From positions 1 to 52,864 of the forward strand of contig JAHFOV010000007.1 in assembly GCA_023261505.1 (NCBI GenBank): a DNA stretch of 52,864 nucleotides. Reading direction: 5' to 3'. Shown one piece after another: positions 1,207 through 45,223 of the stretch. Position numbers and translations under genes: made by a program. The DNA is from Planctomycetota bacterium (GTDB lineage: Bacteria; Planctomycetota; Brocadiia; Brocadiales; Bathyanammoxibiaceae). Position 1 is the first letter of the stretch. Each line of letters begins with the position of its first letter. The notes beneath the pieces were generated by a model that was given only the letters and a program-made list of their open reading frames with translations, did no database searches and was not told the origin of the DNA.

Positions 1207-1587
1207 TTTCGTTCTCCCTGGCAAAAAGGCAGAAAAACAATATATAGGTGCCGGCGTATTTATATGCAAAATGGATGTTATTCGCAATCTGAGACTTCTG
1301 CAAAAGTCTTATACATACGATGTCTACCACACTAATCCCTCCCCCTTGATGGGGGAGGGAAGTCCGCCAAAAAGATAGGCGGATTCGCATCGCACCTTAT
1401 CTGTGCGGGGTCCGCTGATTGCGGATTCGCCAATTTTTGTGGCGAAGGTGGGGGTGATTTATCATTATCACTACATATTTGCCTTTGTTATTTCGACTTA
1501 AGTGAATGGGCCGCTCACCCTCCCCCTACCCCCTCCCCTCAAGGGAGGGGGGAAAATCGGTGGTATTCATAACCTTTTTCAGAGGCA
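1207..1587. other. Intergenic stretch filled with short palindromic repeats
   Basis: No gene is supported here. The stretch holds several stem-loops: CCCTCCCCC/GGGGGAGGG near 1337-1359, TCCGCC/GGCGGA at 1363-1383, TCCGC/GCGGA at 1411-1425, TTCGCC/GGCGAA at 1426-1446, and a CCCTCCCCTC/GAGGGAGGGG-type hairpin near 1531-1552. The second, third and fourth belong to the dispersed palindrome family seen through the accessory parts of the window. One of the C-rich hairpins could stop transcription, but neither is followed by a clear U tract. Confidence 0.6.
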
Positions 1588-2448
1588 TCAATATATTAGT
1601 AAAGTTCCCCTGTCTAGAATAAAGGTCTTATCTTTTGAAGGTCTTTCTATTAGTCTGCCTGTATAATTTATTCTTTGGCCCTCTTTAAGTGGTGGAAGGC
1701 TGCCTTCAATGGCTAATTCAACCATAATTCCCTGGTCGCTGAGCGTGAGCCTGGTGAGGTCTGGATAGATGTAAATAATTTTGCCCTCTCCTCTGATGTA
1801 CATACCCTGGCAATGTTTCCATAAGGTATCTCTAGCGGTGGGAGTGGATTCTTCTGAGAGACCTTGTTCTACCTGGTGGAGGGATAGGCCAATGAAGTAC
1901 TTTTTTTCTTCTTTGGGCGGTAATCCGCCTGAGGCGGATGGCGTAGGTCTTTCTGCAAGAGGTTCTCCGAAGAGCTCATTAAAGCGACTCTCGTACTTAG
2001 CGACCAATTGTGGTTCGTCCAGAAAAAGGGCATTTTCGTAGTTGAATTTCTCTGCATACTCAGTTAGTGAGTAAGAGCCTGTAAAAACCTTTTTGTTGTC
2101 GAATATTATAAAAGTATGATGCATCTGGCCTCCCATTCTCCCCTGGACAAGTTTTATTTCCAAACTTTGTTCTCTGAGGAAGGGGACTAAGGAGGTAGGT
2201 CTTTGGGCCTCCCGATAGTCGAGTAGGATTCTTACCCTGACCCCCCTACTTCTTGCAATGAGAAGTGCCTCTGCAAAGTCACCGGAGGTGAACTGAAAGG
2301 CGGCAATATCTATAGAGGTTTTGGCTTCCTGGATGTGGCTGAGGAGTTCGTTTTTTACCCCACGTTGGGGAGAAAAGTGGGTCGTTACTTCAGCCCGTGA
2401 CTCAACACAGAGTAGCAATACAGATATAATAGATAGGATGTATTTCAT
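1588..2448 (-). CDS. Secreted PLD-superfamily (Nuc-like) protein with altered HKD motif
   Basis: The protein has 286 residues and a signal peptide with likely cleavage after SRA (residues 17-19). Residues about 24-165 resemble single-HKD endonucleases of the phospholipase D superfamily, which work as dimers on phosphodiester bonds. The conserved motif reads MHHTFIIFDNKKVFTGSYSLT: threonine replaces the lysine of HxKx4D, so the active site is probably impaired or changed. The C-terminal 80 residues look like an OB-type beta domain. Residues 170-176 are encoded by a perfect 17-bp palindrome of the dispersed repeat family (1923-1939), which acts as an in-frame linker between the two domains. The start is the ATG at 2448, immediately before the signal sequence. 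Confidence 0.75.
   Translation of the reverse strand: MKYILSIISVLLLCVESRAEVTTHFSPQRGVKNELLSHIQEAKTSIDIAAFQFTSGDFAEALLIARSRGVRVRILLDYREAQRPTSLVPFLREQSLEIKLVQGRMGGQMHHTFIIFDNKKVFTGSYSLTEYAEKFNYENALFLDEPQLVAKYESRFNELFGEPLAERPTPSASGGLPPKEEKKYFIGLSLHQVEQGLSEESTPTARDTLWKHCQGMYIRGEGKIIYIYPDLTRLTLSDQGIMVELAIEGSLPPLKEGQRINYTGRLIERPSKDKTFILDRGTLLIY
1923..1939. repeat. Perfect palindrome ATCCGCCTGAGGCGGAT inside the PLD-like gene
   Basis: This 17-bp palindrome belongs to the TCCGCC...GGCGGA family and encodes part of the linker (SASGGL on the minus strand) without breaking the frame. Related copies lie near 1363, 1411, 37067, 41240 and 44657, with a half copy at 726. Confidence 0.85.
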
Positions 2449-2506
2449 AGTGTTCAGGTAATATAATATCAGATAAAAGGGGAAGATAAGAATACCTTTT
2501 TTGGCC

Positions 2507-2534
2507 TTGCAAAAGGCAAAAATATTTTTATAAT
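2507..2534 (+). promoter_or_regulatory. Sigma-70-type promoter of the tRNA cluster
   Basis: TTGCAA (2507-2512) and TATAAT (2529-2534) are separated by 16 bp. The predicted start near 2541 lies a few bases before the first tRNA. Confidence 0.7.
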
Positions 2535-2546
2535 AATGAGTTTGAA

Positions 2547-2621
2547 GCTAGCGTAGCTCAAGGGTAGAGCAGCTGTTTTGTAAACAGCAGGTTGTGGGTT
2601 CAAGTCCCGCCGCTAGCTCCA
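2547..2621 (+). tRNA. tRNA-Thr (anticodon TGT)
   Basis: The sequence folds as a cloverleaf: acceptor GCTAGCG pairs with CGCTAGC, the T arm carries GGTTCAAGTCCC-type sequence, and the anticodon loop is TTTGTAA. The CCA end is encoded (2619-2621). It is the first of four tRNAs ahead of tuf. Confidence 0.96.
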
Positions 2622-2654
2622 CGAGGCGCGGTCTGTCCAAAAAGGATAAAAAGA

Positions 2655-2740
2655 GGGGAGATTCCCGAGTGGCCAAAGGGGACAGACTGTAAATCTGTTG
2701 GCGAAGTCCTTCGGAGGTTCGAATCCTCCTCTCCCCACCA
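2655..2740 (+). tRNA. tRNA-Tyr (anticodon GTA)
   Basis: This is a class II tRNA of 86 nt with a long variable arm. Acceptor GGGGAGA pairs with TCTCCCC, the anticodon is GTA, and CCA is encoded at 2738-2740. Confidence 0.96.
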
Positions 2741-2783
2741 TTAATAAAGGTTTAAAAGTTCAAAGGTTCAAGAGTTCAAAGTT

Positions 2784-2854
2784 GCGGGCGTAGCTCAATG
2801 GTAGAGCCCTAGCCTTCCAAGCTAGCCATGTGGGTTCGATTCCCATCGCCCGCT
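2784..2854 (+). tRNA. tRNA-Gly (anticodon TCC)
   Basis: Acceptor GCGGGCG pairs with CGCCCGC and the anticodon loop contains TCC. Unlike the other tRNAs here, CCA is not encoded: the sequence reads CTC after the discriminator T. It would need the CCA-adding enzyme. The promoter of the next transcription unit begins 4 bp downstream. Confidence 0.95.
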
Positions 2855-2857
2855 CTC

Positions 2858-2885
2858 TTGACAAATTCTTTTTAATTGGTATAAT
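2858..2885 (+). promoter_or_regulatory. Strong sigma-70-type promoter before tRNA-Thr(GGT)-tuf
   Basis: A consensus TTGACA (2858-2863) and a consensus TATAAT (2880-2885) are separated by 16 bp. It is the best promoter in the window and probably drives tRNA-Thr(GGT), tuf, rpmG, tRNA-Trp and secE. Confidence 0.85.
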
Positions 2886-2921
2886 TTTTGTTTTGTCACT
2901 ATATGATATAATATATTCAAT

Positions 2922-2996
<75 letters not shown>

Positions 2997-3040
2997 GCTC
3001 ATAGGCGGGTCGCAGATTTAAATTTAAGGAGAGGGTTGAT

Positions 3041-4243
3041 ATGGCAAAGGAAGTATTTAAGAGAACGAAGACTCACGTAAATGTGGGCACTATAGGCCAC
3101 ATAGACCATGGGAAAACTACGTTGACTTCGGTGATAACTCATGTTCTTGCAAAAGCGGGACTGGCCAAGGAGAGAGCTTTTGATACTATTGACAACGCCC
3201 CTGAGGAGAAGGAAAGGGGTATAACTATTGCAATCTCCCATGTTGAGTATGAGACGGAAAAGAGGCATTATGCCCATGTGGACTGCCCTGGGCATGCAGA
3301 CTATATAAAGAATATGATTACAGGTGCCGCCCAGATGGATGGGGCTATCCTGGTGGTTAGCGCTCCGGATGGACCCATGCCCCAGACCAGGGAACACATC
3401 CTATTGGCTCGTCAGGTAGGCGTACCTGCAATAGTAGTATTTATGAACAAGATAGACGCCCTTGAGGACACGGAGCTGCAGGATTTGGTGGAGATGGAGG
3501 TTAGAGAACTGTTAAAGAAGTACAAGTTCCCAGGAGACGAGATACCAGTGATTAAGGGTTCGGCTCTCGAGGCCATGAACTGTGGCTGTGCCAAGAGGGA
3601 GTGCGCTAAATGTGGGGCTATCTGGAAGCTTATGGACGCCGTTGATAACTACGTGCCCATTCCTGTAAGGGAGATAGAAAAACCCTTCCTTATGTCTATA
3701 GAGGACGTTTTCAGCATAAAGGGTAGAGGCACCGTGGCTACGGGAAGAGTGGAGAGAGGCAAAGTAAGGGTTGGAGATGAAGTAGAAATAGTGGGCCTCA
3801 CCCATGAGATAAGAAAGACAGTGGTGACCGGGGTGGAAATGTTTAATAAGACCCTGGAGGAAGGACAGGCCGGAGACAACGTAGGAGTGCTCCTCAGAGG
3901 GGTAGAAAAGGAACAACTTGAAAGAGGTCAGGTTCTAGCGGCCCCAGGAAGCATCACACCCCATACAGAGTTCGAGGCGGAGGTTTATATTCTGACGAAG
4001 GAAGAGGGAGGCAGACACACACCCTTTTTCACAGGATATAGGCCTCAGTTTTATTTCAGGACTACTGACGTGACCGGGGTAGCAAAGCTTCCACCTGGAA
4101 CGGACATGGTAATGCCTGGAGATAATGTAAGGCCAAGTATAGAACTTATTAACCCTGTAGCTATGGAAGAGAACCTGAGGTTTGCTATCAGGGAAGGTGG
4201 TCATACCGTAGGGGCTGGGGTAGTTACCAAGGTACTTAAGTAA
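3041..4243 (+). CDS. tuf: Elongation factor Tu
   Basis: The 400-residue GTPase delivers aminoacyl-tRNA to the ribosomal A site. G1 GHIDHGKT is at residues 19-26, with DCPGH and NKID following, then beta-barrel domains 2 and 3. The start ATG follows AAGGAGAG. Residues 181-191 form an unusual Cys-rich insert (C181-x-C183-x4-C188-x2-C191) between the G5 GSAL motif and the helix LMDAVD, with the geometry of a small metal site. The gene lies beside rpmG and secE rather than after fusA, and this is the only tuf in the window. Confidence 0.98.
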
Positions 4244-4250
4244 AAAGTAA

Positions 4251-4403
4251 ATGGTACGGGAAGCTATAACACTAGTCTGTTCTGAGTGTTCTGGTAGAAA
4301 CTATCGGAGTACAAAGAAGGCAAGGGCTACAGGAAAGCTAGAGCTTAAAAAGTATTGTCGTTACTGTAGAAAACACACAGTTCACAAGGAACACAAAAAA
4401 TAG
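4251..4403 (+). CDS. rpmG: 50S ribosomal protein L33
   Basis: This 50-residue protein starts at the ATG 4251, 7 bp after the tuf stop. It has the zinc-binding form of L33: one CxxC pair near residues 10-13 and a second near residues 38-41. The order tuf-rpmG-tRNA-Trp-secE-nusG is conserved in many bacteria and supports the call. L33 sits near the E site of the large subunit. Confidence 0.95.
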
Positions 4404-4410
4404 GAAGGAT

Positions 4411-4486
4411 AGGTCCGTAGCTCCAATGGTAGAGCACCGGACTCCAAATCCGGGTGTTGGGGGTTCGAGTCCCTCCGGACCTGCCA
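4411..4486 (+). tRNA. tRNA-Trp (anticodon CCA)
   Basis: Acceptor AGGTCCG pairs with CGGACCT, the anticodon loop is CTCCAAA, and the 3' CCA is encoded at 4484-4486. It lies between rpmG and secE, a common position. Confidence 0.96.
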
Positions 4487-4504
4487 TTAAAGATTTGGCC
4501 AGGA

Positions 4505-4963
4505 ATGGCTCTAGAGATATACAAAAAAAATCAAGGGGTTTATGCTAGAGTTTCTCTAGGGGCAGGTTTAGGAATCCTGGCCCTGATGGCTGCTCACAGC
4601 TTATATGGGAGTTTGATAGAGCTGCCTGAGTTGTATCCTGGCGCCAGAGTGCCACTGGTAGATGTTCCATTTACCTGGGGGCTTTTAAGTTCTTTAGTGT
4701 TTTTTACCCTCAGTGCGTTCCTTGTGGCTGCGACGACCATTGGCCTAGAGACAGGAGTAAAGACACTAGATAACACTAGCAAGAAGACGGTAGAGTTTCT
4801 AATAGAAACACAGGGAGAGCTTCAAAAAGTCTCCTGGCCTACTAGAGAGGAACTTACAGGCTCTACAGTAGTAGTAATAGTTTCAGTAATTATCCTAGGT
4901 ATTTACATCTTTGCGGTTGATTGGGTAATAACAAGGGTTATGAAGTTAATAGGCTTTATATGA
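4505..4963 (+). CDS. secE: Preprotein translocase subunit SecE (long form)
   Basis: This 152-residue membrane protein is part of the SecYEG channel. The conserved SecE core is C-terminal (ELQKVSWPTREEL followed by a transmembrane helix, about residues 100-145). Two further hydrophobic segments precede it (about residues 15-40 and 60-85), so it should span the membrane three times rather than once as in the short forms. The ATG at 4505 is taken as start, with only a weak AGGA upstream. It lies 18 bp after tRNA-Trp. Confidence 0.9.
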   Translation: MALEIYKKNQGVYARVSLGAGLGILALMAAHSLYGSLIELPELYPGARVPLVDVPFTWGLLSSLVFFTLSAFLVAATTIGLETGVKTLDNTSKKTVEFLIETQGELQKVSWPTREELTGSTVVVIVSVIILGIYIFAVDWVITRVMKLIGFI

Positions 4964-5118
4964 TGATGTTCAGATGTTCAGCTCCAGACGAAGGTTAATA
5001 TCTTAGAGAAAAGGACATTCCTTATAAGGCTATTACTAGGATATTACTTGAAACATACATCAATTTAAGGTCTCTAAGAACCCACAAAATATCAGGAATA
5101 TTTTTGCTCTCTATAAAT

Positions 5119-5667
5119 ATGAAGAAGTGGTTTGTGTTACGAGTTCAGAGTAACAAAGAGGAGAAGGTAAGAAGAACCCTCGAAGAGTGTATAAAAGTCA
5201 GAGGTTTGGAAAATAAGGTCTCCAAGGTTCTTGTTCCTACAGAAAAGGTCTCTGAGATTAAAGGAGGAAAGAAGAGGGTCTCTGAAAGAAAGGTTTATCC
5301 AGGCTACGTAATGGCAGAAGTAGAAGTGGATGAACAGGGTAATATGCCTCCAGAGGTCTTATTTCTTATAAGAGAGACCCCTGGGGCAGGGGATTTTTTG
5401 GGAGGAGAGCGCACTAGACCGGTACCAATGGCTCCTTATGAGGTGGAAAAGATCCTAGCTGAAGTGGAAAAGGGAGAGGAAAGGCCCAAGGCTAAAATAC
5501 ACTTTAAAGAAGGCGAAAAGGTCAGGATTAAGGAAGGTCCATTTGAAAACTTTGAAGGTGCAGTGGAGGAGATTATGGAAGGCACGGGAAGGGTAAGGGT
5601 AATTCTAACTATCTTTGGAAGGGCCACACCAGTGGAACTGGAATACTGGCAGGTGGAGTCAGTGTAA
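5119..5667 (+). CDS. nusG: Transcription termination/antitermination protein NusG
   Basis: The 182-residue protein has an N-terminal NGN domain ([19 protein letters not shown] near residue 60-70) that binds RNA polymerase. A C-terminal KOW domain ([16 protein letters not shown]) contacts Rho or ribosomal protein S10. I chose the ATG at 5119 over the in-frame TTG at 5104 because the family begins at this Met. The stop codon overlaps the rplK start by one base, so the two are translationally coupled. The 155-bp gap from secE holds a tandem GATGTTCAGATGTTCAG but no clear promoter. Confidence 0.95.
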
Positions 5668-6092
5668 TGGCTAAGGAAGTATTGGCGAAGGTAAAACTTC
5701 AAATACCAGCCGGCCAGGCTACGCCGGCCCCTCCTGTAGGGCCTGCCCTCGGTCAGCATGGGGTAAATATTGGTTTCTTTGTCTCTAAATTTAACGAGAA
5801 GACCAAAAATAACCCCGGTGTTATAACACCGGTAGAAATAACTATATATAAAGACAAGACTTTTGATTTTGTACTAAAGTCACCCCCGGCCTCCGTGCTC
5901 CTAAAACAGGCAGCTGAGATAGCAAAGGGTTCAGGAGTTCCTAACAAGGATAAGGTGGGAAAGGTCACGAAACAACAGGTCTTAGAAATAGCCAAGACTA
6001 AGCTTCGGGACCTTAACACTAAAGACCTCCAGGAGGCAGCGAAACTGATAGAAGGAACGGCTAGGAGCATGGGGTTAATAGTTGGAGATTAG
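5667..6092 (+). CDS. rplK: 50S ribosomal protein L11
   Basis: The 141-residue protein of the GTPase-associated centre starts at an ATG overlapping the nusG stop. The N-terminal thiostrepton-binding part ([19 protein letters not shown]) and the C-terminal 23S-binding domain are both complete. It heads the L11-L1-L10-L7/L12 string. Confidence 0.98.
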
Positions 6093-6094
6093 CT

Positions 6095-6775
6095 ATGGCT
6101 ACCAGAAGCAAGAGATATACTGAGAGCAAAAAGCTGTACGATAGCAAAAAGGAATACTCCATAAAAGAAGCAGTGAAAATACTAAAGAGCTTCCCACCTG
6201 CAAGGTTTGACCAGAGCGTAGAGCTTTCCATTAAGTTGGGCATAGATCCCAAACGCTCAGACCAGATGGTAAGGGACGCCTTCTCATTGCCTAAAGGGGT
6301 TGGAAAGGAACTAAGAGTAATGGTTTTTACCACTGGAGAAAGAGCCGAAAAGGCCCTTAAGGCCGGTGCCATAGAGGCAGGCGCAGAAGAACTTATAAAA
6401 AAGATAGAAGGTGGATGGATGGATTTTGATGTGGCTATAGCTACTCCTGACATGATGCGCCAGATTGGAAAGCTGGGAAGGATACTCGGTCCACAGGGAA
6501 AGATGCCCTCTCCAAAATCAGGAACTGTAACTGAAGATGTAGAAACAGCCGTGAAGGAGTTTAAAGCAGGTAAAATTGAATACAGGAGTGATGCAGGAGG
6601 AAATGTACATGCCCTAGTAGGGAAAGTCTCCTTCAAGACTGAAGACCTGGAAGAAAATATAAATGCTTTTATATCCCACCTGCTGGCCTCCAAACCACCA
6701 TCAGCTAAGGGAAACTTCGCCCAGGGTGTGTTTTTGTCTGCTACTATAAGTCCAAGTATAAAATTAGCCGTTTAA
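6095..6775 (+). CDS. rplA: 50S ribosomal protein L1
   Basis: The 226-residue protein of the L1 stalk is full length, with the family signature GRILGPQGKMPSPKSGTV near residues 128-145. L1 usually represses its own L11-L1 message; I did not find an obvious mimic of its 23S site in the leader. Confidence 0.98.
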   Translation: MATRSKRYTESKKLYDSKKEYSIKEAVKILKSFPPARFDQSVELSIKLGIDPKRSDQMVRDAFSLPKGVGKELRVMVFTTGERAEKALKAGAIEAGAEELIKKIEGGWMDFDVAIATPDMMRQIGKLGRILGPQGKMPSPKSGTVTEDVETAVKEFKAGKIEYRSDAGGNVHALVGKVSFKTEDLEENINAFISHLLASKPPSAKGNFAQGVFLSATISPSIKLAV

Positions 6776-6779
6776 AAAC

Positions 6780-7322
6780 ATGGTAAGCACGGTAAACAAT
6801 TTAATAGTAAAAGAACTTGTTCAGAGGTATCAGGGTACCAGGAACTGCCTTGTAGTGGGTTATCAAGGCATAAAGTCTCTGGAGACTAACGAGCTAAGAA
6901 AAGACCTCAGGACAAAAAACATTCACATGGAGGTAGTAAAAAATACGTTGGCCTCTTTAGCCTTTGAGGAAATAAGCTTAACGGACATGAAAAATCTCCT
7001 TGAAGGGCCTTCTGCTATAGTAATTGGGCCGATAGACCCAGTGGTGCTAGCAAAGACTTTAGTAGAATGGTCAAAGAAGATGCCTTCCTTAAAGGTTAAG
7101 GGAGGAGTGATAGAGGGCAGAATAGTTTCCTATCCCGAAGTGGAGACACTATCCAAACTACCATCGAAACCTGTGCTCTATACACAGATGGTCACGCTTC
7201 TACAGTCTCCTTTGAGTCTATTGGCCAGGACTCTAAGCGCTCCTCTGTACAACCTGAGAGGCGTCATAGAGGCCTTTAAGAATAAAAAAGAAAAAGAAAG
7301 TACAAGCACTACAGGAGGATAA
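6780..7322 (+). CDS. rplJ: 50S ribosomal protein L10
   Basis: The 180-residue protein anchors the L7/L12 dimers at the base of the stalk. The RNA-binding N-terminal domain (residues about 1-130, with [10 protein letters not shown]) is followed by the C-terminal helix that holds L7/L12. It begins 4 bp after rplA, so a separate L10 leader as in E. coli is not present here. Confidence 0.97.
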
Positions 7323-7324
7323 AA

Positions 7325-7741
7325 ATGACTACTGAGACGGCAAAAGAAACCACCTCAGCTAAGATAGATCAGATATTGGACCTGGTTAGTGGGCTAAGCT
7401 TATTAGAGGCTTCACAGTTGGTGAAGGCCTTTGAGGAGCGTTTTGGTGTAACAGCCATGGCGGCTGCTCCAGTAGCTATGCCTGCCATGGGAGCACCCGC
7501 AGCGGCGGCAGCAGCCCCAGTCGAAGAGAAGACAAGTTTTGACATCATCCTAAAGGCAGCAGGGGCCAACAAGATTCAGGTTATCAAGGTAGTGAGGGCA
7601 CATACTACCCTTGGACTAAAAGAGGCCAAAGAACTGGTGGATGCTTCCCCAAAAACCCTAAAAGAAGGTGTTAGCAAGGAAGAAGCTGCTAAAATCAAGA
7701 AGGAATTAGAGGAGGCTGGGGCCACAGTAGAGATTAAGTAA
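7325..7741 (+). CDS. rplL: 50S ribosomal protein L7/L12
   Basis: The 138-residue stalk protein recruits translational GTPases. The N-terminal dimerization domain is followed by a longer than usual Ala/Pro/Met hinge (residues about 40-65) and the conserved C-terminal domain ([19 protein letters not shown]). An AGGAGG-type site lies at the end of rplJ, two bases from its stop, consistent with a high translation rate. Confidence 0.98.
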
Positions 7742-7754
7742 GGACGAAGTTTTT

Positions 7755-36195: not shown

Positions 36196-36204
36196 TTCAA
36201 ACTA

Positions 36205-36324
36205 CAGTAAGCAGTAGGTAGTAGCCGCAGGTCGTGCCTGAGGCAGATTCGCCTTTGGCGAACTTTAGCCTGCTAGACAGTAACCAGTAACCAGTGGTTA
36301 CTCCTTACTGCTTACTTCTTACTG
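36205..36324. repeat. MITE-like 120-bp repeat with inverted ends and internal palindromes
   Basis: The ends are related inverted repeats: AGTAAGCAGTAGGTAG on the left, and on the right a stretch near 36302-36317 whose reverse complement reads AGTAAGCAGTAAGGAG (14 of 16 match). Inside are TGCCTGAGGCA (36235-36245), TTCGCCTTTGGCGAA (36248-36262) and a GTAACC/GGTTAC hairpin. It fills the gap between ahbA and the siroheme protein gene, and its right end supplies that gene's TAA stop. Confidence 0.65.
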
Positions 36325-37110
36325 AATTTCTTTTCTAAGCTTCTGGAGCGTGGATTCCTTGACCAGGACTTCGTACATATTCCGCCCGGTCTCACCCAAT
36401 ATCTTTTCCGAGGCCATTCCCAGGGCCTTTAGCACCTGCGGCTCCTGCACAAACCTAACCAGTTCCGTGGCAAAACGCGGGTGCCTGCCCACCTTCCCGC
36501 CCATAACCACAGTATATCCCCTGGACTCTGTCTTAATAGAACCTGTGGGACAAACCCTTGCACATTGTCCGCAGTCTACACAGCGCTCGTAATGGATGAT
36601 TACTTTTGGCGGGAGTGGCCCTGCCACTGTGTCAGGCTTCAGGGTAATGGCCTCTTCCCTACAGGCCTTTAGACATTTACGGCAGAGAATACACTCTGCG
36701 TCTGTAACCGTCACTTTTTCCCTTGCAATCACGCCGAAGTCCTTTATCTGGGGCATTGAACAGCTATTGGGACAGCCCGCAACGGCCATCTTAAAGGTCT
36801 GGTGGGGAAGTATCCTGCCAGGGATTTTATCGTAAAGCCTCTGGCTGAAAGAAAGACCCTCCATCTTTTCAGCCATACTCCTTGCAACAGGCCTTGGAGC
36901 CTTGATGAGGAAAGGGCACCCCACCTCTTCGCCCTTACATGACTTTATCTGGTGAAGGACCGCCTGCCCATCCTCTCTGATATACTTCTCATACTTTCTG
37001 AGAATGGCTAGTTTGTCTTCTTGAGGCTTCGCTACGGCAAAGTTGTTCGCCACACTGACTAGCGAATCCGCCGATTCTTTTGGCGGACCGGAGGTATGCG
37101 TTGCATCCAT
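36319..37110 (-). CDS. Small sulfite-reductase-like siroheme/4Fe-4S protein with ferredoxin domain
   Basis: The 263-residue protein has two parts. Residues about 50-125 resemble the siroheme-4Fe-4S half of sulfite/nitrite reductases (SCKGEEVGC, then AGCPNSCSMPQ). Residues about 137-195 form a two-cluster ferredoxin domain (CILCRKCLKAC and CVDCGQCARVC). Small dissimilatory-type sulfite-reductase-like proteins of anaerobes have this order. Beside ahbAB it may reduce or bind a siroheme-type compound; this is inference. Residues 8-22 derive from the dispersed palindromes (37046-37087), and a TTGACA lies so close upstream that the true start may be later, for example a GTG giving MANNFAVAKP. Confidence 0.78.
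   Translation of the reverse strand: MDATHTSGPPKESADSLVSVANNFAVAKPQEDKLAILRKYEKYIREDGQAVLHQIKSCKGEEVGCPFLIKAPRPVARSMAEKMEGLSFSQRLYDKIPGRILPHQTFKMAVAGCPNSCSMPQIKDFGVIAREKVTVTDAECILCRKCLKACREEAITLKPDTVAGPLPPKVIIHYERCVDCGQCARVCPTGSIKTESRGYTVVMGGKVGRHPRFATELVRFVQEPQVLKALGMASEKILGETGRNMYEVLVKESTLQKLRKEIQ
37046..37087. repeat. Double palindrome in the 5' end of the siroheme protein gene
   Basis: TTCGC (37046-37050) pairs with GCGAA (37062-37066), and directly after it TCCGCC (37067-37072) pairs with GGCGGA (37082-37087). The same two modules occur in the opposite order at 1411-1446. Confidence 0.75.
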
Positions 37111-38172: not shown

Positions 38173-38251
38173 GGTCTTCATTGTCCGCCTTAGGCCAATC
38201 GGTGGGCTTCAAACTCCCAGCTTTTTAAATCTCATTTAATAGAGTTACAGT

Positions 38252-38279: not shown

Positions 38280-38285
38280 TCCTTT

Positions 38286-39260
38286 ATGTTGAACGGTTTG
38301 GGCCTGGGCGGTATCCACCTTGGGAGGGCAGGACATATTGTATGTGCTGGGTTACCCTGCCCCTTCCACTGTAGGAAGGAGGGGGAGAGGATATTTATTT
38401 TTAAGGAGGGATATGAGAGTATAGTGCGGAGTGCTGAGTGCGGAGTGCGGAATTCAGGATTGAGTAATCGGCAGTCCGCAATACCAAATCCACGAACAGT
38501 CAAAGGCCGTGGGCAGTATCCTTGTGTGGTTCTGGAAAATGGCAAAACGGTGATTATGAGAAGGGTGAGGCATGGGGGCTTATGGGGTAAGATCGCAGGA
38601 GGCGTGCTGTGGGGTGTGGGGCGTCCAGTACGGGAACTAATAAATGCAAAAGAATGTCTAGAAAGAGGAGTCCCCACGGCTGAAATCGTTGGAATAAGGC
38701 TGGAGCGAGTCTTAGGCGGATTTGGTACTTTCTTGGGAGTGGCCTTGCCCTTATTCAGGGCCGAGGTGTTTTCTAAAGAAATACCTGCAACGATAGACCT
38801 CCTGGGACTGCTTACTTCCCCTCAGGAATTTCATCAGCACAAGAGGGCAATCATTAGGGCTGTTGCCATGGCTGTAAGGGCTATGCATGAGGTGGGTTTA
38901 TATCATAACGATTTGCATCTAAAGAACATACTGATAACCATGCCAAGCTTGGGTAGACCTTTTAAGGCTTTTGTTATAGATTTGGACAAATCCAGCCTTC
39001 ACGAAAGATTGTTACTGTCCCAAAAGATTAAAAACCTACTAAGGTTAGATAGGTCTATAGAGAAGTTTATGGCAGTAGGGGCGTACTGCAATACGCCCCT
39101 ACTGCTAAGGGATAAACTCCGTTTTCTGAGGGACTACATGGGCAGTGATCCGTCTGCGGCAGCTTGGAAGGAACTGGCCCGTAGGCTTAATCCAAGGTAC
39201 ACCTTCCATAGGTTGTGGTGGAAAATAACTAAAATTGCAAATTACAGATTACAAATTTAA
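38286..39260 (+). CDS. Kdo/WaaP-family lipopolysaccharide kinase
   Basis: The 324-residue protein has a protein-kinase-like fold with catalytic loop YHNDLHLKNIL (His207, Asp209, Asn214) and metal motif VIDLDKS (Asp232). This family (KdkA, WaaP, InaA) phosphorylates Kdo or heptose of the LPS core at the inner membrane. Two inserts look repeat-derived. Residues about 47-70 come from a GTGCGGAGTGC-rich stretch (38424-38497), and residues 263-273 are exactly a 34-bp palindrome (39072-39105). Neither breaks the frame. No ribosome binding site precedes the ATG. The last residues (ITKIANYRLQI) also come from an AT-rich repeat. Confidence 0.8.
   Translation: MLNGLGLGGIHLGRAGHIVCAGLPCPFHCRKEGERIFIFKEGYESIVRSAECGVRNSGLSNRQSAIPNPRTVKGRGQYPCVVLENGKTVIMRRVRHGGLWGKIAGGVLWGVGRPVRELINAKECLERGVPTAEIVGIRLERVLGGFGTFLGVALPLFRAEVFSKEIPATIDLLGLLTSPQEFHQHKRAIIRAVAMAVRAMHEVGLYHNDLHLKNILITMPSLGRPFKAFVIDLDKSSLHERLLLSQKIKNLLRLDRSIEKFMAVGAYCNTPLLLRDKLRFLRDYMGSDPSAAAWKELARRLNPRYTFHRLWWKITKIANYRLQI
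39072..39105. repeat. 34-bp palindrome inside the LPS kinase gene, copy 2
   Basis: GCAGTAGGGGCGTAC is followed by its near-perfect reverse complement (one mismatch). It begins on a codon boundary and encodes AVGAYCNTPLL in frame. Its core matches the palindrome at 38145-38172. Confidence 0.9.
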
Positions 39261-39310
39261 AATTACAAGTTATAGATATGAAATATGGAATTTATAATTT
39301 GGAATTTGCT
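39232..39310. repeat. AT-rich repeat between kinase and plsY
   Basis: The AAATTGCAAATTACAGATTACAAAT-type sequence, followed by GGAATTTATAATTTGGAATTT, is a low-complexity stretch. It forms the 3' end of the kinase gene, the short gap, and the first codons of plsY. Confidence 0.45.
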
Positions 39311-39916
39311 GTTTATATACTGGCCTTTCTGGGTTCCTACCTGGTGGGGAGCATCCCTTTTGCTTATTTAGTGGCCAGGTGGGCAGTTGGTATAGATATT
39401 ACGCAGTATGGCAGTGGCAATGTGGGTGCCACCAATGTGGCCAGGGCGGTTGGGTGGCGTTATGGATCTTTGGTCTTTCTGATGGATATGCTGAAGGGGT
39501 TGGTGCCGGTGTATCTAGCCTCAAGATACGTGGGGGTGACAGTCCATCCTCTGGCAATACTTTGTGGTCTGGGGGCAATATTGGGGCACGTCTTTCCTGT
39601 CTATCTCAGATTTCAGGGGGGTAAGGCGGCGGCTACCAGTTTTGGGGTCTTCATATGGCTGGCCCCTAAGGCCCTGCTTATAGCCTTTGTCACATGGGGT
39701 GTTTTTGTACTCCTTACGCGATATGTATCCCTGGGTTCCATTATGGCGGCTGTGAGTTTTTGTGTGGTAATGGTAACCCTATACCATGAGCCTTTTGGAC
39801 AAGGGTTATACCTGACTTTGTTTAGTTTTCTTATTGCCTTGCTTGTGATTATTAGACACAAGGAGAATATCCGTAGGCTCATGGAAGGAACCGAAAGGAA
39901 GATAGGTCAGTCATAA
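39278..39916 (+). CDS. plsY: Glycerol-3-phosphate acyltransferase PlsY
   Basis: The 212-residue membrane enzyme transfers the acyl group of acyl-phosphate to glycerol-3-phosphate, the first step of phospholipid synthesis. Signatures are GSIPFAYLVAR, GSGNVGATNVAR (glycerol-phosphate site) and GGKAAATSFGVFIW, with about five hydrophobic segments. The first 10-12 residues come from the AT-rich repeat, and no ribosome binding site is evident, so the exact start is uncertain. Confidence 0.93.
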   Translation: MKYGIYNLEFAVYILAFLGSYLVGSIPFAYLVARWAVGIDITQYGSGNVGATNVARAVGWRYGSLVFLMDMLKGLVPVYLASRYVGVTVHPLAILCGLGAILGHVFPVYLRFQGGKAAATSFGVFIWLAPKALLIAFVTWGVFVLLTRYVSLGSIMAAVSFCVVMVTLYHEPFGQGLYLTLFSFLIALLVIIRHKENIRRLMEGTERKIGQS

Positions 39917-39919
39917 AGG

Positions 39920-39990
39920 CAGGTATTAGGGTCAAGGGGTTAGGGGCTAGTAATAATTAAGTCATGTTTGCTAGTCCGTAATCCCTGGCC
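39920..39990. repeat. Imperfect inverted repeat between plsY and amrB
   Basis: CAAGGGGTTAGGGGCTAG on the left and CTAGTCCGTAATCCCTGGCC on the right are imperfect inverted copies. They separate two convergent genes and could end both transcripts. Confidence 0.45.
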
Positions 39991-39991
39991 C

Positions 39992-40849
39992 CTAGAACAC
40001 TATCCCCGCATACCCCACAAAACTACTTGGGTCGCCTATAGGCTCTACGTCGTAACTGGTAGTGTAGTGGAGGAGCTCGCCACTAGTGAGTTCCAGAGCC
40101 CTAGCATAGGCCACAGTGGCTGCCAGGGCGCCTGGGCCACAGGCATTCATGTTTTTGCTGGCCTCAGGGATTATTTCTTCAGCATTCATAGACATACAAA
40201 GGTCTATCATGCGTTTATCATTAACTTCTTTCACCCAGGCTAGGGCCTTCATCCCTGTACCCACGCTTTTTACGCCGTAGTTAAGGCCGTAATGTGTCAG
40301 GTCGCTTGTGCCTATCACCGTTACTTTTTTTCCTTTTAATAACTGGGCAAGTTTATCTCCCAGTGGCGGTGAATCATTAGTGGCAGGGACCATGATGGGT
40401 ACAATATTAGCCTCTGGGAAGAGGTGCTGTATAAAGGGTACTTGTACCTCTATAGAATGCTCCATGAGATGACTCTCCAACTTTTCAATGAGGAGGTCAG
40501 GACATTCTTTTAAGAGGTAGTTAGCCAGGGCAGAGTCTATTTCTATCTCCCCCAGCGGTGTCTCCCACGAGCCCTCAGCCATGATGGTGGGTTTGTCTAC
40601 ACCAGCGACGTGGACAGAGCCCAATAGAACAAAGGTCTGTGGCTGAGAAAGTCGGTTGATGTTGTAATATACAGCAGCTGCCGTCTGCCCTGAATATATC
40701 CAGCCCGCATGGGGGACTATGCCAGCTACTATCTTTTCTCTCTTAGAGAGAATTGAGGAGGCCTTTCGCAGATACCTTTCGAGAGCCGATTCGCAGACCC
40801 CGGCACTGCCGGGATAAAATCCGATAGCAATGGGACTCCTTACAGCCAA
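39992..40849 (-). CDS. amrB: AmmeMemoRadiSam system protein B (MEMO1 family)
   Basis: The 285-residue protein belongs to the MEMO family, related to class III extradiol dioxygenases. Motifs include IVPHAGWIYSGQTAA (residues 43-57), a GS-H-x-G stretch in LLGSVHVAGVD, MEHSIEVQVPFIQ and SDLTHYG. In many genomes it occurs with an AMMECR1 protein and a radical-SAM enzyme; those partners are not next to it here. The start is a TTG at 40849 (MAVRSPIAIGFYPG) after a weak AGGAAT, since no ATG lies nearby. Confidence 0.9.
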   Translation of the reverse strand: MAVRSPIAIGFYPGSAGVCESALERYLRKASSILSKREKIVAGIVPHAGWIYSGQTAAAVYYNINRLSQPQTFVLLGSVHVAGVDKPTIMAEGSWETPLGEIEIDSALANYLLKECPDLLIEKLESHLMEHSIEVQVPFIQHLFPEANIVPIMVPATNDSPPLGDKLAQLLKGKKVTVIGTSDLTHYGLNYGVKSVGTGMKALAWVKEVNDKRMIDLCMSMNAEEIIPEASKNMNACGPGALAATVAYARALELTSGELLHYTTSYDVEPIGDPSSFVGYAGIVF

Positions 40850-41159
40850 TTTTTAATTCCTTTCATTACGAGCAAGTTTAGCAAGGAGAAAGCAGATTTG
40901 TCAAAAGCAATATGGGACTATCCACTAAGTTATAGGCTGACATCTCATCTAAAATGTTGCCGTTTCTATATACTGCCAAATTTATGTAATTATTTTATAC
41001 ATTCTTTTTTGTGTAAATTTCTTTTACATATAGCCAAGTTTAGGTCTTTTAAAGACTAATGTGCTCTTTATCTTGGATTGCTAGCCCATCACTAGGGTTT
41101 TGTAATATTTATGAACAAATTAAGACCTCTGAAAAAGTATGGGGAGCGACGCCTAAAGT

Positions 41160-41254
41160 GTCATTGCAAGCGAAGCGAAGCAATCTCATGTTTTCTAGCG
41201 CAAACCACTTAGGAGATTGCTTCGGGGCTTCGCCCCTCGTCCGCCTCAGGCGGA
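41160..41254. repeat. Composite dispersed repeat (GCGAAGCAATCTC element plus TCCGCC palindrome)
   Basis: CGAAGCAATCTC (41176-41187) pairs with GAGATTGCTTCG (41213-41224). Then GGGGCTTCGCCCC (41224-41236) and the perfect TCCGCCTCAGGCGGA (41240-41254) follow. Elements of the CATTGCGAGCGAAGCGAAGC type are known as dispersed repeats in many environmental genomes. Confidence 0.75.
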
Positions 41255-41555
41255 TCAGCTTTGCCCAAGATTTTTCAGAGACCTCAAATTGTAATTGGGC
41301 CATTAATTTTTGGCTTTACCTTAAGTTCTTTTATTTAAAAGTATTTGAATTTCTTTTCCGTTCCTTTCCCCTTTTGGCATATAGCTTGCCCAACATTTTA
41401 ATTCATAATTTCAATAATACAAATATCATAGGAGATAAAAGCATTGGGTAGTACCTTAAAGTCACAAGCCTTCTATTCTTACGGTCCGTCTCAGGCTGAT
41501 TATTTTAAAGTGTTACCCATGTTTATATACTCCACATAAAGAATTAGAAATTTGA

Positions 41556-41583
41556 TTGACAATTCTGGAAAGGCTTACATATT
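41556..41583 (+). promoter_or_regulatory. Promoter of the lipoprotein gene
   Basis: TTGACA (41556-41561) and CATATT (41578-41583) are 16 bp apart. AAGGAGG follows at 41602-41608, with a possible TTG start at 41615. Confidence 0.5.
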
Positions 41584-41614
41584 GTTCTCTAAAACCTTAC
41601 TAAGGAGGCGCCGG

Positions 41615-42201
41615 TTGGAAGGGAGGAGCAGCATAGCAAGGGGCACAAGCAAGAAAGACGGCGCTTTAGTGTATTTCGTCAGTTTCTTGGGGCTATTTTA
41701 CTCTGTGGATGCCAGCATATGGTTACGGGAGAGGCAGACCTATGGAAGGTTAAAAATGACCCAACTACAGGGGTAAAAAGGGTAGTAGAAAAATACTCTA
41801 CTGAAGGACAAGGTGAGGCTGTGGCGAAAAACGAGGCGGTAAAGATAGTCTTTAATCGTATGTTCTTGAAGCATATGGGCTGGACAGGCTTTGGAGAAAT
41901 CGTGGTCTTTGCAGAGGTCCAGGATGACCCTGAAGGGGATAGTAGACTTGTTACTAAAGTATACCGACCTCAGATAGTAGAAAATGCCTATCTAAACTTC
42001 ATTGACTCTACAATTTATGGTCCAATAGAATTTGATTGCACCTTCACCTTCCACCCTGTTAACCCTGAGACAACTGGCCCTGTTGATGTATTACTTTTGC
42101 GCTACGGACAATACTTAATTATTAAAAGGGAATTTGAGGAGAGGCCGGAGGCCAAAAAGGAATCGAAAGCACCTTCACACGAATATCCTTCAAAGACGTA
42201 G
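41615..42201 (+). pseudogene. Putative lipoprotein gene, N-terminal part, frame disturbed
   Basis: The main frame gives 160 residues from an ATG at 41719 (MVTGEADLWKV to the stop at 42201). The same frame is open upstream and encodes RRRFSVFRQFLGAILLCGCQ, which resembles a lipoprotein signal, but it has no start codon. A good Shine-Dalgarno (41602-41608) serves a TTG at 41615 in another frame, so an indel near 41650-41665 probably split the 5' end. I do not recognise the family. The mature part is mixed alpha/beta, with no cysteine until late. Alternatively, translation begins at 41719 and the protein is cytosolic. Confidence 0.5.
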
Positions 42202-42293
42202 AGTGTGAAAATGGTAAACTCTGGAGAGGGAACGACGAGTGTAGGGACAAAAGTTATGCCCTCATTTCCGTTGTTAAGTGCAAAGACGAGAGG

Positions 42294-42749
42294 GTGAATA
42301 GAGACAATGTGTTAAGGCTTAGCGCAGAAACCGCAAAGGAATACGATAAGCTGATAGCCGAAGATAACCTGAGCCTTGTAGAAGAGCGTCTGAGGGAACT
42401 TACCGCCACTTCAATAGCCTTTATGAATCTGGAGAAGATAAGAGAGGCCTGCCGGATGACGAACAGCATTGTTCCCTGTGGTACAGCCCTGAAAAGTTTA
42501 GTCGGAGAATCAGGGAAGCCAGGGGAAATAGATAAGCTGAAGAGTCAATTAGGAAGTACTACAGGTCTAGAAACTAAAAATGCCATAGGCACCTTCTTGC
42601 AGGAGAAAGAATCTCTAAGAGATGGTCTCGTGAGAGACTTGTTAGACCTAACGGGTTTGTATAAGACTCCTGAAGCCTGGGCAGCGGAAGATCCGTCCAA
42701 ATATAAAAAAGATCCGCGTAGCGGATATTACAGACCCAGTCAAATATAA
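42294..42749 (+). CDS. Hypothetical helical protein, probably C-terminal part of the preceding gene
   Basis: From the GTG at 42294 the protein has 151 residues, mostly helical and charged. The frame is open back to 42138 and encodes protein-like sequence there (TFTRISFKDVECENGKLWRG), overlapping the end of the lipoprotein frame. A one-base shift at the AAAAA run near 42154-42158 would fuse the two into one lipoprotein of about 330 residues. I do not recognise the family. The last codons (DPRSGYYRPSQI) overlap a small GATCCGCGTAGCGGAT palindrome. Confidence 0.5.
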   Translation: MNRDNVLRLSAETAKEYDKLIAEDNLSLVEERLRELTATSIAFMNLEKIREACRMTNSIVPCGTALKSLVGESGKPGEIDKLKSQLGSTTGLETKNAIGTFLQEKESLRDGLVRDLLDLTGLYKTPEAWAAEDPSKYKKDPRSGYYRPSQI

Positions 42750-42764
42750 AGAAATCCGCTTACA

Positions 42765-42803
42765 GGAGATTTAGGTTACGATATTCAGGTAACCTAGATC
42801 TCC
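42765..42803. repeat. Long inverted repeat, possible terminator
   Basis: Two 15-nt arms (GGAGATTTAGGTTAC and GTAACCTAGATCTCC, one mismatch) flank a 9-nt loop. A short T6 run follows only at about 42818. It lies downstream of the broken lipoprotein gene and upstream of the next operon. Confidence 0.55.
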
Positions 42804-42981
42804 CAGTCGGCGAAAAGTTTTTTACAGGCTTTGTTGTTTTCTGCAATACTTTTCGTATCGCCCATACCTCAGAAAAGTAATCCAGATTTATTCCAGTGTT
42901 TCCTAAGCATCTAACCTACTTGCCCCTTTAAATTCCTCATTTTTTTGGTTATCATAACATCTATCTCAAAAGGAGGCGTAG

Positions 42982-43623
42982 ATGTTGAAGATAGATGGTA
43001 TTACCATCACCTGGCTTGGCCACGATAGTATGAAGATAAAGGCAGTGGTAGCACCAACGGGTGCCTCAAGGGTCATTTATATAGACCCATTTCGGTTAAA
43101 AGAAAAGGAGGCTGCAGATATAGTCTTAATCACTCATGAGCACTATGACCACTGCTCTCCCGAAGATGTAGCAAAGATAGCGAAAAAAGATACAGTGGTG
43201 ATTGGCACTACAGATGTCACTCCCAGGTTTAAAGGAGCGACTAGGACAATAAAGGCTGGAGATTCCGTTACTATCCATGGGGTTACCATAGAGGCCGTTC
43301 CTGCTTATAACACCAACAAGAAATTCCACCCCAGGGCCAGCGGTTGGGTGGGGTATATTATAAACATCGGTGGAAAAAGGGTCTATCATGCAGGGGACAC
43401 AGACCATATACCGGAGATGGAGTCCCTGAAGGATATATATGTGGCGCTGGTGCCGATTAGTGGCATCTACGTTATGACGGCGGAGGAAGCAGCGGAGGCT
43501 GTGAACAAGATAAAGCCCAAAGTAGCTGTACCTATGCATTACGGCTCTGTAGTCGGGACTAAGGCCGATGCCGAACGTTTTAAGAAGCTGGTAAAGGAGC
43601 CGGTAAAGGTGGAGATATTATGA
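42982..43623 (+). CDS. Metallo-beta-lactamase-fold hydrolase (UPF0173/UlaG-like)
   Basis: The 213-residue enzyme has the metal motif THEHYDH (His52, His54, Asp56, His57), a later HAGDTD and a C-terminal PMHYGSVVGT. Members hydrolyse phosphodiesters or lactones; the substrate is unknown. AAAGGAGG precedes the ATG. It overlaps the next gene by 4 bp (ATGA) and is first in a tight five-gene unit ending in mutS. Confidence 0.9.
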   Translation: MLKIDGITITWLGHDSMKIKAVVAPTGASRVIYIDPFRLKEKEAADIVLITHEHYDHCSPEDVAKIAKKDTVVIGTTDVTPRFKGATRTIKAGDSVTIHGVTIEAVPAYNTNKKFHPRASGWVGYIINIGGKRVYHAGDTDHIPEMESLKDIYVALVPISGIYVMTAEEAAEAVNKIKPKVAVPMHYGSVVGTKADAERFKKLVKEPVKVEIL

Positions 43624-44681
43624 CAAAGGCAGTTGCATTGCTATCAGGGGGATTGGACAGCACTCTGGCTGTGCACCTGATGAAGTCTTTGGGTGTGGAG
43701 GTGGTGGCCCTGAACTTCACTACGGTCTTCTGCCGCTGTAACCGCGGGGGGAGTTGTAAATCCGAGGCAAAAAAGGTCTCTGAAGCCCTTAGAATACCTG
43801 TAAAGATGCTAAACATTACAGCCAGCTTCCTCAGGCTGGTCAAAAGGCCCAAATACGGTTATGGGAAAAACATGAACCCTTGCATAGATTGCCGTATCAA
43901 TATGTTTAGAATGGCAGGGGAGTTCATGAGGGAGATAGGGGCAGACTTCATAATTACTGGCGAAGTGCTAGGCCAGCGCCCGATGAGCCAGCGCCGTGAG
44001 GCAATGAAGATTATAGAGAAAGAAGCTGGCGTAGAGGGACTGGTTCTTAGGCCCCTTTGTGCCAGGCATATGCCTCCTACTATTCCAGAAAAGGTAGGGT
44101 TAGTAGATAGACAAAAACTTCTTGACTTCAAGGGGCGGGGAAGAAAGGGTCAAATGCAATTGGCAGACGTCTTTGAGCTAAAGGACTATCCATGTCCTGC
44201 GGGAGGCTGCCTTTTGACAGACCCAATGTTTGCCCACCGTATAAAAGAACTCTTCAACCATGATATTGGGTGTGAGTTGGGTGATATCCACCTTTTAAAA
44301 GTAGGCCGACACTACCGCCTGGATGATAGGACAAAGGCTGTCGTTGGTAGAAGAGAGGAAGAGAACCACCTGATAGAACACTATGCACAGCCAACGGATG
44401 CCCTTCTTATGCTTACAGACCTTACAGGCCCCTTGTGCCTAGTGAGAGGTAGCCTTACAGAGGAGAACCTTCGCCTTGCGGCAGGGCTGGTAGCCCGCTC
44501 AAGTAAGGCCAGGACGCTTTTCAGCGTTCGCATAACGGTTAAGCTCGATGGGGTCGAGAGGGTGATAGAAACAGCCCCTCTTGATGCTGCCAGGGCCCAG
44601 GAGTTGCTGATAGTAAAGAAAAAAGAGTCCGCTATTAGTCGGGAGTGGCACTGCCATCCGTCTGAGGCGGAAAGGGGGTGA
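43620..44681 (+). CDS. PP-loop ATP pyrophosphatase, ThiI/MnmA-like tRNA sulfurtransferase homologue
   Basis: The 353-residue protein has the PP-loop SGGLDST (residues 9-15), a Cys pair region (FCRCNRGGSC), NPCIDCR near residue 85 and YPCPAGGCLL near residue 192. This resembles the ThiI/MnmA-type proteins that thiolate tRNA, here without a THUMP domain and with a C-terminal domain like those often labelled tRNA 2-thiouridylate methyltransferase in anaerobes. Exact substrate is unknown. Residues 346-351 (HPSEAE) come from a TCCGTCTGAGGCGGA repeat, so the last few residues are probably recent. Its stop overlaps the next start by 4 bp. Confidence 0.82.
   Translation: MTKAVALLSGGLDSTLAVHLMKSLGVEVVALNFTTVFCRCNRGGSCKSEAKKVSEALRIPVKMLNITASFLRLVKRPKYGYGKNMNPCIDCRINMFRMAGEFMREIGADFIITGEVLGQRPMSQRREAMKIIEKEAGVEGLVLRPLCARHMPPTIPEKVGLVDRQKLLDFKGRGRKGQMQLADVFELKDYPCPAGGCLLTDPMFAHRIKELFNHDIGCELGDIHLLKVGRHYRLDDRTKAVVGRREEENHLIEHYAQPTDALLMLTDLTGPLCLVRGSLTEENLRLAAGLVARSSKARTLFSVRITVKLDGVERVIETAPLDAARAQELLIVKKKESAISREWHCHPSEAERG
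44657..44671. repeat. Palindrome TCCGTCTGAGGCGGA in the 3' end of the PP-loop gene
   Basis: This is a one-mismatch copy of the TCCGCC...GGCGGA family. It encodes the C-terminal PSEAE residues 10 bases before the stop. Confidence 0.8.
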
Positions 44682-45223
44682 GGAGCATACTGCAATTTAA
44701 TAGCGGAGTTTATCTTCTTATATGTAACGTGCCGGCTTGTCTGGCACGAACTAATTTGCCAGGTGCGTTCCATTCATTTCAGAAACAGCGTCAGAGGCAA
44801 GCTCCGACGCTACATTACAAAAAGTCGACCAATGGACTTGAAATACAAATAGGTAAGCTAGGAAGGGCCTTTTTCCCTGAGGGTTTTTATGTGTATGTAG
44901 GCAGCGCCCAGAGAAGTCTGGCCCAAAGGCTGGAAAGACATTTACGTAAAGAAAAAGCCCTCCACTGGCATATTGACTACCTCCTGCATCACGCTGAAAT
45001 CCTTTCTATATATGCACAGAAGGCTTCTAAGGAGTGGGAGTGCAGGTTGAGTAGGAGGCTGGCGGGGCTTGAGGGGGCAAGAGTAGTCATGAGGGGTTTC
45101 GGGTCTTCGGATTGTGGATGCATGTCCCACTTGTACTTCTTTCCCAGTAGGTTTCATCTTCCGAAAATAGATCATTTATTCCAATCATCAAGAGTGAATA
45201 AGGAGAAAAAAAGTCATGGATAA
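44678..45223 (+). CDS. GIY-YIG nuclease family protein (DUF123) with repeat-derived insert
   Basis: The 181-residue protein starts at a GTG (44678). The DUF123-type core is recognisable: GVYLLI at the N-terminus, then LEIQIGKLGRAFFPEGFYVYVGSA, RLERHLRKEKALHWHIDYL and a C-terminal GSSDCGCMSHLYFF. Between the first two elements about 36 residues (17-52) are encoded by two stem-loop repeats (44728-44748 and 44787-44811), which normal family members lack. The frame survives, but activity is uncertain. The end overlaps the next gene by 8 bp. Confidence 0.78.
   Translation: MRSILQFNSGVYLLICNVPACLARTNLPGAFHSFQKQRQRQAPTLHYKKSTNGLEIQIGKLGRAFFPEGFYVYVGSAQRSLAQRLERHLRKEKALHWHIDYLLHHAEILSIYAQKASKEWECRLSRRLAGLEGARVVMRGFGSSDCGCMSHLYFFPSRFHLPKIDHLFQSSRVNKEKKSHG
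44728..44811. repeat. Two stem-loop repeats inserted in the GIY-YIG gene
   Basis: CGTGCC pairs with GGCACG (44728-44748), and AGCGTCAGAG pairs with CTCCGACGCT (44787-44811, one mismatch). Both lie in frame within the coding sequence. Confidence 0.8.

What the first reader, a model, noticed from the sequence alone, without database searches (positions are those of the whole stretch)
1363..44811. In-frame palindromic repeats inside several protein genes (RPE-like behaviour)
Short palindromes lie in frame in at least five genes: the PLD-like gene (1923-1939), the siroheme protein (37046-37087), the LPS kinase (39072-39105), the PP-loop gene (44657-44671) and the GIY-YIG gene (44728-44811). A half copy sits at the TPR/CBM junction (726-735). 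They add linkers or tails without destroying the frame, as Rickettsia palindromic elements do. The ribosomal supercluster seems free of them. This could be a selfish element family that tolerates translation.
Basis: partly seen in the sequence, partly recalled or inferred. Interest (0 to 1): 0.75.

Follow-up and report, generated by a model that had tools for sequence, protein, structure and literature searches.

The report
Tiny palindromes inserted into working genes
Uncultured groundwater bacteria related to the anammox bacteria carry hundreds of copies of a 15-letter DNA palindrome that has repeatedly entered genes, hairpins and even a catalytic RNA, usually swapping 5-6 letters for 15, so that many proteins keep their reading frame and only gain a small linker.

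Summary
The palindromes are real, far above chance, and in frame. The host is a Brocadiales (Planctomycetota) MAG. The core element, A (TCCGCCTNAGGCGGA, 15 bp), has 158 exact copies in this genome and 0 control matches. It has 72-259 copies in most sister genera, 3-10 in one, and none in most other Planctomycetota apart from a few distant families. Orthologues lack the inserts in the PLD, NIR/SIR (two inserts) and DUF123 ("GIY-YIG") genes. The Kdo-kinase insert is shared with two relatives, with three different cores inside the same ends. Filled/empty comparisons show that A usually does not simply insert: it replaces 5-6 bp with 15 bp (net +10 or +9); coding events are nearly all +9. A is enriched at tips of existing hairpins, caps helix P3 of RNase P RNA in three relatives, and is depleted from genes; coding copies are 31/36 in frame and prefer the Ser-Ala-Ser-Gly-Gly frame. 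It works like Rickettsia palindromic elements but is not that family. Companion elements (GTAGGGGC...GCCCCTAC) resemble RAYT-linked GTAG REPs; A fits no described family I found. I infer an ultra-short mobile palindrome spreading by hairpin-tip replacement; the enzyme is unknown.

The parts
1924..1938 (-). A element in frame in the PLD-like gene (1588-2448, minus strand), encodes Ser-Ala-Ser-Gly-Gly in the linker after the PLDc_2 domain
   Evidence: ERPTPSASGGLPPKEEKKYF here; orthologues in G001-G005, G007, G008 lack SASGG
1363..1446 (.). intergenic composite of palindromes (TCCGCC..GGCGGA + TTCGCC..GGCGAA, 'C composite')
   Evidence: same composite at L061:9834 and a related one at L038:14585
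36614..36630 (-).
   Evidence: KPDTVAGPLPPKVIIHYERC against KPDRTVIVHYERC in relatives
37046..37087 (-). degenerate C composite, +42 bp in frame, near the N-terminus of the NIR/SIR gene (36319-37110)
   Evidence: MDATHTSGPPKESADSLVSVANNFAVAKPQ against MDATHASGRLAVVNPQ
36248..36262 (.). intergenic C palindrome TTCGCCTTTGGCGAA
38145..38172 (.). intergenic B element GTAGGGGCGTATTGCAATACGCCCCTAC
39075..39102 (+). B element in frame in the Kdo/WaaP kinase gene (38286-39260), encodes VGAYCNTPL; the same codon site holds other cores in G005 and G007
41240..41254 (.). A element beside a CGAAGCAATCTC repeat, in a 130-aa ORF that is probably not a gene
44656..44670 (+). degenerate A (TCCGTCTGAGGCGGA) in the variable C-terminal tail of the PP-loop gene (43620-44681)
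   Evidence: orthologues diverge in sequence and length after ...LIVKK
44728..44811 (+). two-hairpin composite in the DUF123/GIY-YIG gene (44678-45223), about +32 residues against G005

Best explanation
The window shows copies of an ultra-short mobile palindrome (A, TCCGCCTNAGGCGGA) and several longer companion palindromes in a Brocadiales genome. SHOWN: A appears at new sites; in most comparable sites 5-6 bp of the old sequence are gone and 15 bp stand in their place; sites are enriched at tips of existing hairpins, including other repeats and RNase P helix P3; A and others nest and exchange cores inside older palindromes; copies are rarer in genes, and coding copies nearly always keep frame. 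INFERRED: A moves as a DNA hairpin while a target hairpin is extruded as single strand (for example on the lagging strand). The target's tip, about 5-6 nt, is cut out or skipped and replaced by the A hairpin (6-bp stem, 3-nt loop), by a host or trans-acting nuclease or by template switching onto another copy. The 5-bp events shift frame (+10) and are found outside genes; the 6-bp events add exactly three codons and are tolerated in loops and linkers, best in the frame giving Ser-Ala-Ser-Gly-Gly. I see no sign of a host function; selfish or neutral spread is most likely.
For: Copy number and lineage pattern. Replacement at 90-99% flank identity: L231:5775 vs G001 (TGTTG->A), L279:1768 vs G005 (CAACG->A), L160:3967 vs G005 (CTCAG->A), L088:15241 vs G007 (CTGACG->A), L116:13228 vs G005 (CAGAGA->A, also absent in G003 and G004); of 17 pairs with a clear net gain (6 bp or more), 13 replace 5 or 6 bp and 2 replace 9 bp. 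Coding pairs are net +9 apart from one or two at +6. Hairpin tips: stems of 5 bp or more flanking A within 4 nt in 13.7% of non-composite sites against 3.3% with flanks re-paired (permutation p about 0.003, the floor); exact loop replacement TCCTG[CAGAGA]CAGGA and RNase P P3 in G001, G005, G007 against CCGTCCGT[CTTGC]GCGGACGG in G006. Flanks: purine at -1, pyrimidine at +1 (85%), with A..C / G..T favoured over paired ends, so the unit is strand-asymmetric. Coding depletion, 31/36 in frame, frame preference. Core exchange at one kinase codon. A distant family carries A at a hairpin tip too (GCCCCG-A-TCGGGGC).
Against: No enzyme was identified. RAYT-type transposase counts do not follow A (G017 22 matches and 0 A; G000 one match and 158 A). 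Most A sites show no surviving flanking stem. Replacement lengths rest on about 17 pairs, several at only about 82-85% flank identity where alignment can shift by a base or two. Polarity (gain rather than loss) is firm only where outgroups were seen (PLD, L116:13228, L120:539, RNase P P3).
Confidence: 0.6

Rival explanations
1. A and B are ordinary REP elements mobilised by a RAYT (Y1) transposase, inserting by single-strand transposition; the replacement is noise.
For: B and companions begin GTAG; Y1_Tnp genes in several relatives are flanked by their own REP-like hairpins, and the only Y1 gene found in G000 lies among GTAGGGGCGGACC...GTCCGCCC hairpins and carries one in frame.
Against: A has no GTAG tag, is not found as a pair around those Y1 genes, and its copy number does not follow Y1 genes; IS200/IS605-type insertion is not known to remove 5-6 bp (own knowledge).
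Confidence: 0.2
2. A is a functional motif (operator, uptake sequence, methylation or chromosome-organising site, terminator) kept by selection.
For: High copy number, strict 15-bp conservation, mostly outside genes.
Against: Gained or lost between close relatives, arrives as a 15-for-6 replacement, sits inside genes and RNase P RNA, no T-run enrichment next to it (0.021 against 0.030 random), patchy over the phylum with only 3-10 copies in a sister genus.
Confidence: 0.1
3. Quasi-palindrome correction or other local mutation creates the palindromes where they stand.
For: Such mutation makes perfect inverted repeats at hairpins; core changes with both arms matching are seen at one site.
Against: The same 15-mer appears at hundreds of unrelated sites, so its sequence must be copied from elsewhere.
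Confidence: 0.04
4. Assembly or binning artefact, or chance in GC-rich DNA.
For: Draft metagenome assemblies.
Against: Shared filled sites in independent assemblies (G001/G007, G005/G007), zero reversed controls, simulation.
Confidence: 0.01

Closest known systems
Rickettsia palindromic elements (RPE; summarised in PMC3733652)
   Same: Palindromic repeats inserted in frame in many unrelated protein genes, absent from orthologues, tolerated by translation.
   Different: A is 15 bp and unrelated in sequence; it replaces 5-6 bp, favours hairpin tips, and occurs in Planctomycetota.
GTAG-tagged REPs with RAYTs (PMC3733652, PMC2817692)
   Same: Companion elements start GTAG, are hairpins of 20-40 bp, some flank Y1 transposase genes, some lie in genes (as reported for Opitutus terrae).
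   Different: B's GTAG is paired with a terminal CTAC rather than unpaired; A has no GTAG and does not follow Y1 gene number.
Short palindromic repeats of Volvox organelles and the ultra-short invasive element of Podospora mitochondria (PMC2670323, which cites Koll et al.)
   Same: Very short, apparently selfish units (palindromic in Volvox) without an enzyme of their own; means of spread unknown.
   Different: Organellar and mainly non-coding; no fixed 5-6 bp replacement was described in the passages read.
IS elements that target REPs (PMC1525189)
   Same: Existing palindromes are insertion targets.
   Different: There the insert is a full IS; here it is a 15-bp hairpin and part of the target is lost.

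Membership tests
Rickettsia palindromic elements | In-frame insertion in genes, absent from orthologues | tested here: met
Rickettsia palindromic elements | RPE family sequence and length (RPE-1 is a longer palindrome; RPE-4/RPE-6 are CGTC REPs per PMC3733652) | tested here: not met
   A is 15 bp TCCGCCTNAGGCGGA with no CGTC tag in its flanks; compared by size and tag, not by alignment to RPE sequences
GTAG-tagged REP (for A) | Unpaired GTAG at one end of the hairpin | tested here: not met
   Flank profile is YAG or plain purine at most, no GTAG consensus
GTAG-tagged REP (for B) | Unpaired GTAG at one end of the hairpin | tested here: inconclusive
   GTAG present but paired with CTAC; the companion GTAGGGGCGGACC...GTCCGCCC has it unpaired
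GTAG-tagged REP | Cognate RAYT gene flanked by the element | tested here: inconclusive
   Y1 genes flanked by companion hairpins, not by A; the cognate relation itself is not shown
MITE | Terminal inverted repeats of a known IS plus target-site duplication | tested here: not met
   A is one hairpin, no duplication of 4 bp or more beyond chance, target bases are lost
Mobile element | Observed movement in living cells | not testable with these tools
   Sequence comparison only

The most novel reading that the evidence does not exclude
A is the smallest mobile DNA unit known in bacteria (15 bp) and spreads by a new mechanism, replacement of hairpin loops: a 5-6 nt tip is exchanged for a 15-nt hairpin, which lets it enter coding sequence as a clean +3-codon change and enter structural RNAs at helix caps.
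Probability: 0.35. Interest if true: 0.85.

Novelty: new variant of a known kind. Interest (0 to 1): 0.62.

Why it matters
If hairpin-loop replacement is right, DNA can spread without a transposon body, and it leaves frame-preserving linkers in proteins and longer helices in a catalytic RNA. The family offers filled/empty pairs among close relatives, so how ultra-short palindromes (also known from algal and fungal organelles) multiply becomes testable first by sequence and then at the bench. It also warns annotators: residues such as SASGG, PPEAD and VGAYCNTPL in these lineages are insert products.

Tried and rejected
Target-site duplication: none of 4 bp or more beyond chance. Terminator role: no T-run enrichment. 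End joining by Ku: Ku is absent from all A-rich genomes tested. RAYT dosage: no relation to A number. Similarity between the replaced 5-6 bp and A itself: only CTCAG matches the CTNAG core, so no general rule. Literature: no held paper contains the three forms of A that I searched. One viral-contig scan gave two hits, not followed. My coding call is a home-made dicodon score, not a gene finder, so coding fractions are approximate.

Full report
OBSERVATION. The window is contig C76 of a 2.5-Mb draft genome. TCCGCCTNAGGCGGA ('A') has 158 exact copies in the genome and no match to the reversed pattern; GTAGGGGCG...CGCCCCTAC ('B') has 15. In the window, A-type and B/C-type hairpins exceed simulation by more than forty-fold. 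Other families share the genome: B relatives with the same ends and other cores, TTCGCC..GGCGAA (C), AGTGGCAGGGCCACT (E), GCCCTGAACC..GGTTCAGGGC (F), and GTAGCCGCAGGC, GTAGCGTGCCAG, CATTCTGAG and CATTGCGA types.

GENE BY GENE. PLD-like protein: Ser-Ala-Ser-Gly-Gly sits in the variable stretch after the PLDc_2 domain and is absent from orthologues in seven relatives. NIR/SIR protein: a +42-bp C composite near the N-terminus and a separate +21-bp E insert between conserved blocks, both absent in relatives. Kdo/WaaP kinase: G000, G005 and G007 all have a GTAGGGGC...GCCCCTAC element at the same codon, but with cores GTACTGCAATAC, AACCCGACGGGT and a nested one (GTATCGTCGTGCCTTAGGCAGATTCGCCGTGGCGAACAATAC); G006 shows no such element there. 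The simplest reading is one old insertion whose core has been exchanged. DUF123/GIY-YIG: about 32 extra residues made of two hairpins. PP-loop protein: only a variable C-terminal tail.

DISTRIBUTION. In f1 (the own family) A has 158 copies in g1, 194-259 in g2, 72 in g4, 96 in g5 and only 3-10 in g3; 88 in f2; almost none elsewhere in the order. Over 392 Planctomycetota only 23 have any copy, yet f51 (103 and 42 in two genomes) and f69 (107) are rich. This patchiness suits a mobile or repeatedly amplified element.

WHAT THE EVENT LOOKS LIKE. Comparing the same place in relatives, A rarely adds 15 bp. At 90-99% flank identity: GTAGGGGCA[TGTTG]CAACG -> A (G001 empty, G005 filled), CACGTTG[CAACG]TGCCCC -> A (G005 empty, G007 filled), ATCTA[CTCAG]CTAAAG -> A, TACGAG[CTGACG]TGCCC -> A, TCCTG[CAGAGA]CAGGA -> A. 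Among 17 pairs with a clear net gain, 4 replace 5 bp, 9 replace 6 bp, 2 replace 9 bp and two are other rearrangements; more distant pairs (L120:539, L089:18386, L100:1773, L123:6607) also give net +9. Where the flanks are coding (L116:13228, L243:7568, L113:1075, L089:18386, L123:6607, and with weaker support L100:1773 and L100:6983) the net change is +9; the +10 events I found are non-coding. Other families behave differently: F inserts whole with 2-4 bp repeated.

HAIRPIN TIPS. A is often in the middle of other palindromes. With flanks re-paired at random as control, stems of 5 bp or more close to A are four times too common even after removing GTAGGGGC hosts (13.7% against 3.3%; an earlier version agrees). 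RNase P RNA is the cleanest case: in G001 (one base changed), G005 and G007 A caps helix P3, where G006 has CCGTCCGT[CTTGC]GCGGACGG, again 5 for 15; G005 has a second A at P12. RNase P RNA is 604 nt in G000 and 561 in G001 against 310-394 in g3-g5, enlarged by inserts. The bases next to A are purine at -1 and pyrimidine at +1, and A..C or G..T occur about twice as often as the paired combinations, so the unit has a direction.

TRANSLATION. Using a dicodon score, about 20% of A copies have coding sequence on the same strand on both sides against 56% of random positions, and 42% have none against 11%. Of 36 such coding copies 31 keep frame. The frame reading TCC GCC TCA GGC GGA (SASGG) is used 17 times of 31, more than expected (P 0.011 against one third; 4e-5 after allowing for stops, post hoc). 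So genes are mostly closed to A by selection, and what remains is frame-keeping and small-residue.

MECHANISM. Shown: lineage-specific gain, 5-6 bp replaced, tip preference, core exchange, nesting. Inferred: copying or capture of an A hairpin at the tip of an extruded target hairpin. Which enzyme does this is open. Y1 (RAYT-like) genes exist, and their surroundings carry companion hairpins (one even has such a repeat in its own frame), but their number does not follow A; Ku is absent, so Ku-dependent end joining is unlikely.

COMPARISON. It works like RPEs and like the intragenic REPs described in Opitutus and Rickettsia (PMC3733652), but A fails the tag and size features of those families. 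Organelle palindromes of Volvox and the ultra-short element of Podospora (PMC2670323) are the nearest in size and in the open question of how they spread. No held paper contains the A sequences searched. I rate it a new variant of a known kind, with a real chance that the replacement mechanism is new.

LIMITS. Draft genomes, a sample rather than all sequence, home-made coding calls, few very close pairs, and no experiment.

Noticed in passing
L295 (G000:C81:25681-26284), L293, L294, L291: RNase P RNA is enlarged (up to 604 nt) by inserts; A caps P3 in three relatives and P12 in G005.
   Followed up: partly
L223:1393-2223 (G000:C118): A Y1_Tnp (RAYT-like) gene that carries GTAGGGGCGGACC-type repeats in its own reading frame, surrounded by many such repeats.
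   Followed up: partly
window 39075-39102; L200, L201: One kinase codon site holds the same outer palindrome with three different cores in three genomes: core exchange within a fixed element.
   Followed up: yes
L088:12373, L183:1423, L089:3349: Family F (GCCCTGAACC-N-GGTTCAGGGC, 25 bp) inserts with a 2-4 bp repeat, once into the middle of an E palindrome.
   Followed up: partly
L232, L254 (Dehalococcoidia Bin_016), L248 (Omnitrophica): Contigs filed under other phyla carry the B/A composite; either misbinned Brocadiales DNA or transfer.
   Followed up: no
L282, L283 (viral contigs): Single exact A copies with a TAA flank in two IMG/VR contigs.
   Followed up: no
L296, L303 (G126): In distant family f51, A sits at the tip of GCCCCG-A-TCGGGGC, the same habit as in Brocadiales.
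   Followed up: partly
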